Shown here piece after piece: positions 3,021-29,259 of a stretch of 64,000 nt of DNA. A program made the position numbers and the translations under genes. Where the stretch lies: NCBI GenBank assembly GCA_017405305.1, contig JAFRAT010000009.1, forward strand, positions 186,001-250,000, written 5' to 3'. Under the pieces are notes generated by a model. The model was not told the DNA's origin. It did not search any database and saw only the letters and a program-made list of their open reading frames with translations. Source of the stretch: Aeriscardovia sp. (lineage in GTDB: Bacteria; Actinomycetota; Actinomycetes; Actinomycetales; Bifidobacteriaceae). Numbering within the stretch: the stretch's first letter is position 1; every line of letters begins with the position of its first letter.

Positions 3021-4465
3021 CGTGCGCCTCCTTTGTTGTCTTTCTCATTGTTGTCCCGCGAGCTGGCCGGACGTTGGGATTTCGGAGTCCAGTACCTGAC
3101 CTCATGCTGCGTGTTTTCGGAATATGCCAGGGAACCCCGGTGCACGTAGTGGCGGATGACCGCGCCCGCGCCTGTCGTTACGCCGTCGGCCACTTCGACT
3201 GGGGCGACGAGCATGTTATCGACGCCGATGTGGACGTCCGAGCCGATCTTCGTCGGGTTCTTGTGTTTGCCGTCATAGTTCGCCGTGATGGTGCCACCGC
3301 CGATGTTGGTGTGGTCGCCGATCGTGGTGTCGCCGATGTAGCTCAGATGCGGCACCTTCGTGCCGTCGCCAATCGTCGACTTCTTCATCTCCACGCAGGT
3401 GCCCTGTTTGGCGCCGCCGCCCAGCACGCAACCCGGGCGCATGTAGGAGAACGGGCCGACCTCGGCGCGCGGGCCGACGACGCTATTCTGCATGAGCGCG
3501 CGGTGGATGCGCGCGTCCTGGCCGACCTTCATGTCCACCAGCTCCACGTCTGGTCCGATGACCGTGCCCTCGCCCACGACCGTGCGGCCGCGCAGGAACG
3601 TGTTCGGCAGCAGTTCGACGTCGCGCGCCAGGCGCACATCGTCATCGATCCATGTGGTGTCCGGGTCGAGGATGCTGACTCCTTCGCGCATCCAACGCTC
3701 GCACACGCGGCGGTTGTGGGCTTTGGCCAGGCGTGTCAGCTGCACACGGTCGTTGACGCCCTCGACGGCCAGGGGATCCGGCGCGGCGAACGCGCCCACA
3801 CGGCCGTAGTTGCCAGCGAACTCGATGGCGTCGGTCAGGTAGAACTCGTTCTGGTCGTTCTGAGAATCGAGATTGGCAATAGCCTGCGCCAGCACGGATG
3901 TCTGGAACACGTACACGGAGGTATTCACCTCGCGGATGGCGCGCTGCGCATCGGTGGCATCGCGCTCTTCCACGATCTTCTCGACGGAGCCATCGGCGCC
4001 GCGCACGACGCGCCCGTAGCCGAACGGGCTGTCCAGCACAGTCGTCAGCACAGTGGCCACGGCACCGGAACGCTCGTGGGCGTCCATGAGGCTGGAGAGC
4101 GTGGACGCATCCAGCAGCGGCATGTCCCCAGCGGCGATGAGCACGGAGCCATCGCCCCGCGGATCGATGGCGGCGATGTCGCCGGCTAGCCGGGACATAG
4201 CGCACTGCACGGCACGCCCGGTTCCCGGGATCTCGTCTTGTTCGACTATGACGGCTTTCGGGAACGCGCGCAGAGCCTCGGCCTCCACCTGGTCCTTGCC
4301 ATAACGGACCACGACCGACAGGATTTTCGGGTTCGCCGCGCCGACGGCCGATATCACGCGGTTGAGGAAGGTCCTGCCGCCCAGCGTGAACAGCGTTTTC
4401 GGCCTGCGGGACTTCATGCGCGTCCCCTCGCCAGCCGCCAGGATGATCGCCGAATCCAGAGACAT
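3017..4465 (-). CDS. glmU: Bifunctional GlmU (GlcN-1-P acetyltransferase / GlcNAc-1-P uridylyltransferase)
   Basis: GlmU makes UDP-GlcNAc for peptidoglycan. The N-terminus AIILAAGEGTRMKS is the nucleotidyltransferase signature, and the C-terminal half is a hexapeptide left-handed beta helix ending near GGGTITANYDGKHK and TTGAGAVI. I chose the ATG at 4465 because a GGAAGG box lies about 9 bases upstream and the signature begins at residue 6; the longer open frame to 4597 adds an unrelated Arg-rich tail. The resulting 482 residues are slightly longer than the usual ~455. It is the first gene of the operon continuing into rsfS. Confidence 0.95.
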   Translation of the reverse strand: MSLDSAIILAAGEGTRMKSRRPKTLFTLGGRTFLNRVISAVGAANPKILSVVVRYGKDQVEAEALRAFPKAVIVEQDEIPGTGRAVQCAMSRLAGDIAAIDPRGDGSVLIAAGDMPLLDASTLSSLMDAHERSGAVATVLTTVLDSPFGYGRVVRGADGSVEKIVEERDATDAQRAIREVNTSVYVFQTSVLAQAIANLDSQNDQNEFYLTDAIEFAGNYGRVGAFAAPDPLAVEGVNDRVQLTRLAKAHNRRVCERWMREGVSILDPDTTWIDDDVRLARDVELLPNTFLRGRTVVGEGTVIGPDVELVDMKVGQDARIHRALMQNSVVGPRAEVGPFSYMRPGCVLGGGAKQGTCVEMKKSTIGDGTKVPHLSYIGDTTIGDHTNIGGGTITANYDGKHKNPTKIGSDVHIGVDNMLVAPVEVADGVTTGAGAVIRHYVHRGSLAYSENTQHEVRYWTPKSQRPASSRDNNEKDNKGGAR

Positions 4466-4604: not shown

Positions 4605-7449
4605 CTATTCCGTCAGCCGTCGGTAGTTTCCGAAAAGCAAATCCAAACGGGCGTTGTCGGCGGCCTCGCCATCGCCCAAGTACTTCGGCGCTCCGAAAGC
4701 GGCGTCGACCAGCTTGTCAAGCTTTTTATGCGCCGCCATAAGATCTCGCTCAGGCGTCAACGAATCGTACATGTCTGCCAATGCCTCGTCGGCATGCCTG
4801 GACCGAACCTCGAGGATCGTTTTCGCCGCGGCGCAAATTTCAGAGCGTAGGTCTTCACCAACTTTTGGCAGCGGCAAATTGTTCCAGACTATCGTGTCCG
4901 AAAAACGATAGCCGTTTCCCAATCGTCCGCCGACAGCGGCCTGCCAGACGATGAACATCCTGGATTCGATGATGCCAAAACTGAAGCAATCCGGATCCGA
5001 ACACGTGAAAATCGCATTGCTGGCGATGGTGTCAGACCCGCACCAAGCGCAAGTCATGTATTTTCTTCCACTGGAAAAATGGCTGGGAATAGCCAGATAG
5101 TTGCCTTCCGGCTGTCGGATTTCCTGGAACAGCCACGCGCTTTCAGCGCCATCACGGGTGGCTTGCTTCGTGGAAGCGAGACGCATCTCTCTGGTCTTGC
5201 TGACTCGTTCCCGCAAAAACTTCGACATCCTCAGATCTTTGCTGTCCGCATCAACCAGCCACAGGCACCATTCGTCTTTGCCATTGATGAGTTCCTCGCT
5301 CCCGCAGTACTTCCGGACGTATTTACTGGCAATCGGATCAGCTTCCGCTTCGGACCTGTCGGCCTCTGTCTTCAGCAAAAGATTGCCGCCGTCCACCGGT
5401 TTTGAACCGTAATTGGCAATATCCAAGTCGACGGCCAAAGGACTGGTCCTCTTTGAAACGAAGCAATCATCCGCTGGCAGAAGGTACGCGTTGATGTATT
5501 CCGGAGTGGAAAGCCGCGGTTCGCTTGACGGCGTCTCGTAGCTGTACAACCGGCAACCGTGGCCCTTTGCGTTCGTCATGCCGATAACGACGACGAACAC
5601 ATGCGCGGTATCGGTGGACTGCGCCGTCCATTCGAATGTCTGATGGGCGAATTCAATGCTCCAGCCTTCGGAAAACAGCGGCCGGAAAAGCGCCGCCACG
5701 GGCTGGCCTTGCGTCAAAGAGTTCGTCGACACGAACGCGAAACGCTTGTCTTCGCCATCGGAGAGATAATCGGCCGCTTTGAAATACCAGCCCGCCGCAT
5801 AGTCCAGGTATCCGTTCCAGCGATCCCCGCAAGCCGCTCTCATGTCAGCCGTCTGATCATGAGACTTGGTGTACTGTCCGACGAACGGCGGGTTGCCCAT
5901 CACGTAGGAACACTCATTGGCGGGCAGGAGTTTGTTCCAGTCGTAGCGCAGGGCGTTGGCTTCGACGATGTGTCCTGTGTCTTCCAAAGGCAACCGCGGC
6001 AGGCGACCTTGCAGAATGGACTCAGTAATGTCGTAGGACTGCTGCTCGGCAATCCACAGAGCTGTTCTGGCGACAGCGCAAGCGAAACCGTTGATTTCGA
6101 TTCCGTAGAACTGGTCCAGCGAGACAAGGACAGGGTCGTCCAGTCCGCCACCGAGGCTCATTTCGCCCTGCCCTGCTTTTTCATGTCGCAGTGCCTCGTT
6201 CTCCAACCGTCGCAGAGAGATATACGTTTCCGTCAGGAAGTTGCCAGAACCGCAGGCGGGATCGAGGAAACGCAGATTTCCCAGATCTTCGCGGTATTTT
6301 CTGTAGGCCTTGATCCGTTTTGCTTGCAAATCGCGGCCAACAGAATCATGGAAATCCCTGTTCTCCAAATCGTGGAGCTTGGTCGTTAAATTGTCGAGGA
6401 ACAACGGATTGATGACTTTATGGATGTTCTCCACGCTGGTGTAGTGCATACCACCGGAACGCCGCTGTCGGTGTGACAAAGTCTCCTCCATGAGGCTACC
6501 GAACACGACCGGCGACACCGGACGCCAATCGAAATTGTTTCCGGAGTCCAGCAGAGCCAAGCGTGTTTCTTCCGTGATTTGGGGAATGCGGATCTCGTCT
6601 TTGAAAAGCCCCCCCCCCCATGTATGGGAACCCCTGCAGCCGTTGCGGAATATTGCGGCGGCGTTTGTCGGACGTATCGAGCAAACGCATCAAATCACGG
6701 AGACGGCCGAAATCGCCGCCCATCTCATCGGCCGGCGTATCCTCGATCCATCGGGTGAACCGTTTCGGCTCGCCGAGAAGATCAGCGTCTTCTGCGTAAA
6801 ACAGGAAAACGAGCCGGACCGTCAGCTTAGCGGAATCGGTATGGTCTTGCTCCAAATCCATGCTGTCCTGCTGATAGGAGTCCCACAGCGAGTTATGGAT
6901 TTTGGCAACCAGCCGCGCCGCTGTGAAATCGACTTCTTCCTCGTGGTGGATCTCATGGATGCCAGGCCGCAGCAGGCTCTGGAAGAAGTCGAGATGCTTC
7001 GGCAGCTCTGATAACGGAAACTCCTTCATCGGCTTCCCCGTGGCACGGGCGTCTTTGTTCAGATCGTAGAAACGAAAGCTATGGAAATTGCTGGTGCAGA
7101 CAATCGTTGGTTTCTCGTCGGCCAGCAGACCTGTGACGTAATCGATGGCTTGCTGGACCGGCGTCTTCAGAACGCCTTGCCGTTTCTCCGGCTTATCGAG
7201 ATCGACGGAACTCCCTTTTTGCTCGACCAGAAAATGACAGGGGACGCTGAGGACGTCGATACGACCGTTGTTCTTTCCCGTGGCTGTATCGGAGTCATGC
7301 TCGTAATCAAAGATCTCGTCGGAATCGGCACCTACCAACGAAGCCAAACCATCCCAGAACTGAGCGGTATGACCTTCCTCGCGGACTTCCCCGGACCATT
7401 TGCTGATGAATCGTTGAACAAGCCTCATATCATACATGCCATACGCCAT
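4605..7449 (-). pseudogene. MmeI-type restriction-modification gene, out of frame at a G11 tract (likely phase-variable, OFF)
   Basis: Two adjacent open frames together make one ~948-residue protein, close to MmeI (919). The first (7449 to ~6620) carries the nuclease motif D-x10-E-Q-K in DVLSVPCHFLVEQKG and a helical spacer domain. The second (from ~6608 to 4605) carries the N6-adenine methylase motifs DPACGSGNFL and NPPFVG, then a target-recognition region and an MmeI-like C-terminus. They are separated by a run of 11 G on the coding strand (6609-6619). With 10 G the reading is Met-Gly-Gly-Gly-Leu-Phe-Lys-Asp-Glu and the frame is restored; with 11 G translation runs into a stop at 6496. The gene is less G+C-rich than its neighbours, which suggests transfer. 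No other lesion was seen. Confidence 0.88.
6609..6619 (-). repeat. Homopolymer tract (C11 on +, G11 on coding strand)
   Basis: It lies exactly at the break between the nuclease/spacer and methylase halves of the MmeI-type gene. Loss of one base restores one continuous reading frame. Homopolymers of this length are typical slipped-strand switches, but are also error-prone in sequencing. Confidence 0.85.
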
Positions 7450-28303: not shown

Positions 28304-29259
28304 ATGGAGCAATAGAACAAAGGCAGAAAGCCGAAGCTCGAGCCCGAGGAGCAGATAGCCTTCCTCAGAGGCAAGAGGGTCGCATTCGAGCGCATGGGCG
28401 AGGCCGACGCCATGCGCTACCTCTCGCGGGAGTCCTACCTATTCGCCACGTACGCATATCGGACTCTCTTCCCCAGGCGCGTCGGAGGAGCACACGACGG
28501 CGAGTACGCGAACCTCGACTTCGGCGACCTGGTCGGCCTCGAGCGGCTCGACCGGGATCTCAGGGCGGCGCTCCTGCCGCTCGCGCTCGACGCGGAGCAC
28601 CTCGCGAAAATGCGGGTGCTCGACGAGGTGGCAAGGCGGCCGGACGAGGACGGGCACTCCATCGTGCGCGACTACATGGATTCGCTCCCCCCCCCTCGAG
28701 CGTTCCCGGAGGGCGAAGGAGATTTCGAGGCTCCAGCGCGACGAGTACTCCGGAGACCTCCAGAGGCACTACGCCGCCGAGATGCCCATATGGGTGCTGC
28801 TCGAGCTCTCCTCCTTCGGCACCGTCGCGGACGTCTACCGCTTCTGCGCGAAACGGTGGGGTGACCGCCCCATGCTGCAAGAGCACTACCTCCTCAAGTC
28901 TGCGAAGGGGGTGCGCAACGCCTGCGCCCACTCCTCCGCGATAATCAACGGGTTCGGCTCCGCGAGCCACGATGCACATCCGGCGTCGAACGCCCTCACC
29001 ATCGCCCTGCGCGACGCGGGCTTCTCGAAGAAGTCTAAGGCGGACAGGATGAAGAACCCGCGCCTCCAGCAGAGATAGCCTCGCTCCTGCTCCTCCACAG
29101 GCGCATGGCCGAAGGGACCGCGCTCGCAGGCGAGGCGTCTGCAGGGCTCCGCTCCCTTGCCAATGACATTAGGTCCGTGCTCTCTGTAACCCACCCCGAT
29201 GCCTCCGCGGAGGCATCCATGGAATTCCTCGCCGAGCTGGTTGACCGCTGGTTCTGATC
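28304..29259 (+). pseudogene. Broken Abi_2 (AbiD/AbiF-like) abortive-infection gene
   Basis: The pieces read in order as an Abi_2 protein. They are KLEPEEQIAFLRGKRVAF, YLSRESYLFATYAYR, FGDLVGLERLDRDLRAALLP, MPIWVLLELSSFGTVADVY and GVRNACAHSSAIINGF (the RNxxxH motif of this HEPN-like family), ending in a helical tail that stops near 29259. Three lesions are visible: an in-frame TAG at codon 4 after ATG 28304, a +1 shift at a C9 run (28687-28695), and another shift near 29075. Codon use differs from the core genes and looks like that of another high-GC actinobacterial lineage. Abi_2 proteins block phage growth by host suicide. Confidence 0.7.
28687..28695 (+). repeat. C9 homopolymer within the Abi_2 gene
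   Basis: Losing one C joins the upstream frame (ending RDYMDSL) to the downstream frame (RRAKEISRLQRDEYSGDLQ). It looks like the slippage tract of the MmeI-type gene, but further lesions in this gene argue against a simple switch. Confidence 0.7.

What the first reader, a model, noticed from the sequence alone, without database searches (positions are those of the whole stretch)
6600..6625. Likely phase-variable MmeI-type restriction-modification gene, caught OFF at a G11 tract
The nuclease/spacer half and the methylase/recognition half of one ~948-residue type IIL enzyme are broken only at a run of 11 G. With 10 G the two halves read as one protein. In the current state the nuclease half is made without its methylase. 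Slippage would switch restriction and an epigenetic methyl mark on and off together.
Basis: partly seen in the sequence, partly recalled or inferred. Interest (0 to 1): 0.75.

Follow-up and report, generated by a model that had tools for sequence, protein, structure and literature searches.

The report
Slippery G-tract splits MmeI-type restriction gene
A bacterial gene for a combined DNA-cutting and DNA-marking defence enzyme is split in two only at a run of eleven identical bases, and comparison with relatives suggests this run is a slippery on/off switch, one of several on defence genes in this genome.

Summary
On the minus strand a G11 run (window 6609-6619) separates two ORFs that are the two parts of one MmeI-family (Type IIL) enzyme. 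There is no other lesion. One G fewer gives a single 947-residue reading (not 948).

All 43 relatives covering this point have FPYV(N/D)GGLF-like codons without a homopolymer, so the tract is lineage-specific. Six more MmeI-family genes in the order carry G/C tracts of 8-10 at other positions: four out of frame, two in frame.

In the same genome a Type III mod gene, a Type ISP gene and an Abi_2 gene (window 28687-28695) are also split at G/C tracts. For mod and ISP, a same-genus genome has a different tract length at the same place. G/C runs of 9 or more are about 20 times commoner than short runs predict.

Best reading: a slipped-strand, phase-variable Type IIL system captured OFF. Close precedents exist (C. 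jejuni cj0031c, H. pylori JHP1272, S. coelicolor pglX, B. breve pili), so it is a new member of a known kind. The more interesting part is several unrelated defence genes apparently switched the same way in one small genome. Slippage at this tract itself was not observed.

The parts
6609..6619 (-). G11 tract (C11 on the + strand), site of the frame break
   Evidence: Read directly; frames and product lengths for tract lengths 9-12; absent from all 43 aligned relatives
4605..7449 (-). Whole MmeI-family (Type IIL) restriction-modification gene, 947 codons when read through the tract
6496..7449 (-). 5' ORF: nuclease domain (MmeI_N) and part of the helical spacer (MmeI_hel), last 36 residues out of frame
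   Evidence: Pfam MmeI_N E 4e-26, MmeI_hel E 6e-9; MmeI 5hr4 E 2.5e-10
7210..7263 (-). PD-(D/E)xK-like nuclease motif RIDVLSVPCHFLVEQKGS
   Evidence: Aligned with family members IDxL...LVEQK
4605..6560 (-). 3' ORF: methyltransferase, target-recognition and C-terminal domains
   Evidence: Pfam MmeI_Mtase E 8e-79, MmeI_TRD E 5e-62, MmeI_C E 1.7e-13; MmeI 5hr4 E 4e-129
6228..6269 (-). Methyltransferase motif I, FLDPACGSGNFLTE
5871..5900 (-). Methyltransferase motif IV, MGNPPFVGQY (N6-adenine type)
28687..28695 (+). C9 tract splitting a second defence gene (Abi_2) in the same window; flanking halves 28325-28684 and 28695-28994 in different frames
   Evidence: PF07751 profile 2-78 before and 103-184 after the tract

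Best explanation
This is a single-gene Type IIL (MmeI-family) restriction-modification system whose expression is switched by slipped-strand mispairing at a poly-G tract in the helical spacer, just before the methyltransferase domain. Shown: two intact ORFs of one enzyme meet only at G11, and one G fewer joins them. Inferred: gain or loss of one G during replication toggles the gene. With a non-fitting length only a nuclease-spacer fragment is made, which lacks the recognition and methyltransferase domains and should be inert. With the fitting length, restriction and one-strand N6-adenine methylation appear together. Inferred from MmeI: switching ON is survivable because efficient cleavage needs enzyme on more than one unmethylated site while methylation does not. 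The genome appears to use the same device on at least three other defence genes (Type III mod, Type ISP, Abi_2), so a population would hold cells with different combinations of active defences.
For: Sole lesion at the tract and clean reading on both sides. All MmeI domains present in order and catalytic motifs conserved. The tract is absent from relatives, so it is a derived feature. G/C runs of 9 or more are in large excess over short runs in this genome. Independent tracts sit in six other MmeI-family genes at different positions, four OFF and two ON. Homologous tracts of mod and ISP differ in length between two genomes of the genus, and the mod halves are preserved in both although both are out of frame. 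Slippage at intragenic G-tracts is proved in Bifidobacterium breve (PMC9187656), and variable homopolymers in Gardnerella (PMC11287997).
Against: No read-level or within-species length data for this tract. The in-frame product has Gly where every aligned relative has Asn or Asp, so its activity is uncertain. All four tract-split defence genes of this genome are OFF, which could also mean relaxed selection. The enrichment test was made after the fact.
Confidence: 0.78

Rival explanations
1. The assembled length is a sequencing or assembly error: the true consensus is the in-frame length and the gene is simply ON, or the sample is mixed and the consensus is arbitrary.
For: Long G runs are error-prone, the genome is a 20-contig draft, and no reads are available.
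Against: An error in length would not remove the tract, which is what makes the gene switchable. The excess of G/C runs of 9-12 is genome-wide, and tracts in the genus differ between assemblies by more than one base and with a T indel.
Confidence: 0.2
2. The gene is a pseudogene: a one-way frameshift fixed at a hypermutable run, with no return selected.
For: All four tract-split defence genes found in this genome are out of frame; the genome is small (1.10 Mb) and may be shedding genes; the G182 ISP copy has additional stops.
Against: No other lesion in 2.8 kb; catalytic motifs intact; both sides of the mod gene are preserved in two genomes though out of frame by different offsets; in-frame tract-bearing MmeI genes exist in G113 and G389; 9 OFF of 11 fits random phase (P 0.23).
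Confidence: 0.15
3. The tract works without DNA change: RNA polymerase or ribosome slippage on G11 yields a small constant amount of full-length enzyme from an 'OFF' gene.
For: Long homopolymers can provoke transcriptional slippage (general knowledge; PMC5009743 reviews it and was not read in detail).
Against: No unusual RNA structure at the site (fold z +0.58), and tract lengths are not conserved as programmed slippage would require. It can coexist with replication slippage.
Confidence: 0.1

Closest known systems
Campylobacter jejuni cj0031c, phase-variable Type IIG enzyme (PMC4889913)
   Same: One gene for nuclease and methylase, intragenic poly-G tract of 9-10, ON/OFF by one base, restriction and methylation switch together; tract absent from many homologues
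   Different: A different Type IIG enzyme of 1243 aa with the tract between other domains; switching, motif and phage restriction were measured there, not here
Helicobacter pylori JHP1272 / HP1353-HP1354, Type IIG and suggested Type IIL (PMC3936762)
   Same: Homopolymer ON/OFF of a probable lone-strand-modifying enzyme with similarity to MmeI
   Different: Poly-C tracts, two per gene, the second one switching specificity; a proteobacterial relative rather than a full MmeI-domain member in an actinobacterium
Streptomyces coelicolor pglX (PMC4365076)
   Same: Actinobacterial defence methyltransferase switched by a G-tract in its gene
   Different: Part of the multi-gene Pgl/BREX system, not a self-contained restriction enzyme
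Bifidobacterium breve pilus G-tracts and Gardnerella homopolymers (PMC9187656, PMC11287997)
   Same: Intragenic G-tract replication slippage shown in B. breve, and a variable homopolymer tract in Gardnerella; both are Bifidobacteriaceae, the probable family here
   Different: The B. breve genes shown to switch are surface structures; in Gardnerella, methyltransferases are only listed among tract-associated genes
MmeI (5hr4; PMC4833311)
   Same: Same five-domain order, with both halves aligning to consecutive parts of the chain
   Different: MmeI itself is not reported as phase variable; its contact residues 751, 806 and 808 differ here, so the target sequence is unknown

Membership tests
Type IIL / MmeI family | Nuclease, helical spacer, gamma-class N6A methylase, TRD and C-terminal domains in one polypeptide in this order | tested here: met
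   Five MmeI Pfam domains above cut-off, split between two ORFs that join when read through the tract
Type IIL / MmeI family | Intact PD-(D/E)xK nuclease motif and methylase motifs I and IV | tested here: met
   IDV...LVEQK, DPACGSGNFL and NPPF aligned with family members
Type IIL / MmeI family | Protection of the host by methylating one strand only, with no partner methylase | not testable with these tools
   No second methylase gene is adjacent, but activity needs methylome data
Phase-variable (slipped-strand) gene | Hypermutable repeat whose length sets the reading frame, with an intact full-length reading at one length | tested here: met
Phase-variable (slipped-strand) gene | Repeat length varies between close relatives | tested here: inconclusive
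   Shown for the mod and ISP tracts in the same genus; no close allele of this MmeI gene was found
Phase-variable (slipped-strand) gene | Reversible high-frequency switching of phenotype | not testable with these tools
   Needs culture and deep sequencing
Phasevarion (methylation-controlled regulon) | Switching of the methylase changes expression of other genes | not testable with these tools
   No expression or methylation data; recognition sequence unknown

The most novel reading that the evidence does not exclude
Defence in this small-genome lineage is run as a lottery: Type IIL, Type III, Type ISP and Abi_2 genes each carry their own independent G/C-tract switch, so each cell expresses a random subset, while the Type I system has no G/C tract of 8 or more and is stable. 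If tracts also recur across MmeI genes of the family under selection, stochastic defence and methylation would be a general habit of these bacteria.
Probability: 0.4. Interest if true: 0.68.

Novelty: new member of a known kind. Interest (0 to 1): 0.5.

Why it matters
Switchable restriction-modification is best known from proteobacterial pathogens. Here a full-length MmeI-family enzyme and three other defence genes in one probable Bifidobacteriaceae genome appear to be switched by the same kind of tract. If so, phage resistance, DNA uptake and methylation marks would vary from cell to cell, and single reference genomes would misreport R-M content because tract-bearing genes are easily annotated as broken.

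Tried and rejected
Programmed frameshifting by RNA structure: rejected, the fold is no better than shuffles. Independent translation of the methylase half from internal starts: a TTG at 6560 has a weak purine-rich upstream stretch, nothing convincing. Prediction of the recognition site from MmeI contact residues: residues at 751, 806 and 808 match neither known code; only Ala774 and Arg810 agree with MmeI, hinting at a purine before the methylated adenine (PMC4833311). Invertible hsdS at the Type I locus: no convincing inverted repeats, only weak matches of 70-81%. Closer alleles on plasmids: Bifidobacterium megaplasmids carry intact 53-54% relatives; the five read have no tract. The named-genome scan gave only distant relatives. 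C5-methylase genes: none in the genome.

Full report
Observation. The + strand reads C11 at 6609-6619. On the - strand the 317-aa ORF 7449-6496 runs into the tract in one frame. A second frame, open from just before the tract to 4605, carries a 651-aa ORF. Both sides are clean (276 and 668 codons), and only a tract one base shorter gives the single 947-aa product; lengths 9, 11 and 12 give 353, 317 and 354 aa. A first-order model expects 0.002 G/C runs of 11 or more in a gene of this length. The real background is stricter still: runs of 6 or more number four in the window against 37 modelled.

Identity. The 5' ORF matches MmeI_N and MmeI_hel; the 3' ORF matches MmeI_Mtase, MmeI_TRD and MmeI_C. 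Both match the same solved chain, MmeI 5hr4, in consecutive parts, and the same PADLOC Type IIG profile. Nuclease and methylase motifs are intact. The tract falls in the spacer region that precedes the methylase, at the motif FPYV(N/D)GGLF. All 43 relatives aligned there encode the motif without a homopolymer, and the same-genus copy reads ATG GAC GGA GGA TTA TTT. The in-frame reading here is FPYMGGGLF, so the tract has replaced a conserved Asn/Asp by Gly. That marks the tract as a new feature of this lineage and is also a caution about activity.

Setting. The window lies in a 1.10-Mb, 20-contig draft that is 99.96% complete. The family is probably Bifidobacteriaceae; this is inferred from gene order, genome sizes and the nearest plasmid hits in Bifidobacterium, and no name was available. 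The gene is 55% GC between flanks of 65-66%, suggesting acquisition.

Relatives with tracts. I looked for G/C runs in MmeI-family genes of the family and of 396 genomes of the order. In the family, besides this gene: G183 (same genus) is broken at G9 near residue 12, and that is the only G9 match in its genome. G179 is broken at a G9 near its N-terminus. G087 is broken at C10 near the methylase-TRD boundary. G113 has G10 in frame close to the same boundary. Outside the family, G350 is broken at G8 near residue 137 and G389 has G9 in frame. Five tracts in family MmeI genes compare with 0.5-1.0 expected from each genome's density of such runs (P 2e-4 to 4e-3). Without the own genome it is four against 0.5-0.9 (P 0.002-0.014). 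This test was made after the fact, with tract numbers estimated from match counts. The varied positions imply several independent origins.

Other switches in the same genome. Twenty-one G/C runs of 9 or more occur, where 37 exact six-base runs would predict about one under the same decay (count and scaling mine). Three further defence genes are split exactly at tracts. A Type III mod gene at G10 has PADLOC MTase_III on both sides and a helicase-like ORF behind it. A Type ISP gene at G9 has its N-terminal codons in another frame from the nuclease-helicase-coupler body. An Abi_2 gene in this window at 28687-28695 has halves matching profile 2-78 and 103-184. Tracts also lie near the 5' ends of an LPxTG pilin and an InlB-repeat surface protein. 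The Type I system showed no G/C run of 8 or more and no convincing inverted hsdS repeat.

Direct length variation. The same-genus genome G182 has an allele of mod at 94.6% nucleotide identity: G10 followed by T here, G9 without T there. Both are out of frame by different offsets, with both sides preserved. The ISP tract is G9 here and G7 there (85% identity; the G182 copy has further stops). The 20 ISP relatives in other genera of the family lack such a tract.

Mechanism. Established: tract length sets the frame. Inferred: replication slippage toggles the enzyme. G-tract or homopolymer switching of this sort is reported for B. breve pili (PMC9187656), C. jejuni cj0031c (PMC4889913), H. pylori JHP1272 (PMC3936762) and S. 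coelicolor pglX (PMC4365076). In MmeI one TRD serves cutting and methylation, and efficient cutting needs two sites (PMC4833311), so a fragment without the TRD should be inert and re-activation tolerable. States seen across all R-M tracts are 9 OFF of 11, compatible with random phase (P 0.23).

Limits. No reads, no second strain of this species, no methylome. The present length could be a consensus error, but the existence and excess of tracts could not easily be one.

Verdict. A real, probably functional phase-variation locus of a known kind, in a family where switching had been proved for pili. The wider pattern of several switched defence genes is the part worth pursuing.

Noticed in passing
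window 28325-28994 (+), tract 28687-28695: An Abi_2 (abortive-infection-like) gene is split at a C9 tract; both G/C runs of 9 or more in the window split a defence gene.
   Followed up: partly
L087 3450-5682 (G000:C10), tract 3821-3830: Type III mod gene split at G10, followed by a helicase-like res ORF; the same-genus G182 allele has G9 and a different frame offset.
   Followed up: yes
L082 1-3130 (G000:C3), tract 2989-2997: Type ISP restriction gene whose first codons are in another frame across a G9; the G182 allele has G7.
   Followed up: yes
L098 7117-7127 (G000:C18) and L086 3009-3018 (G000:C10): G11 upstream of an LPxTG pilin-like gene and G10 at the start of an LPxTG protein with InlB-type repeats, both resembling known surface-protein switches.
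   Followed up: partly
L095 2999-3009 (G000:C14): C11 about 30 bases before an ORF beginning MSERDVAVDVSVISDAIDKIGNRL, which resembles a restriction-type N-terminus by eye.
   Followed up: no
L101 3005-3016 (G000:C20): G12, the longest G run found in the genome, lies in the intergenic stretch just upstream of a membrane transport protein gene (Mem_trans), possibly altering promoter spacing.
   Followed up: no
L205-L207 (G182:C91, C40, C129): The same-genus genome has several partial mod copies on separate contigs, 77-96% identical to the own mod protein, perhaps exchangeable recognition parts.
   Followed up: no
L175-type family g13 genomes (handles G175-G181): Genomes of only 0.6-0.9 Mb carry up to four MmeI-family genes each, a high load for their size.
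   Followed up: no
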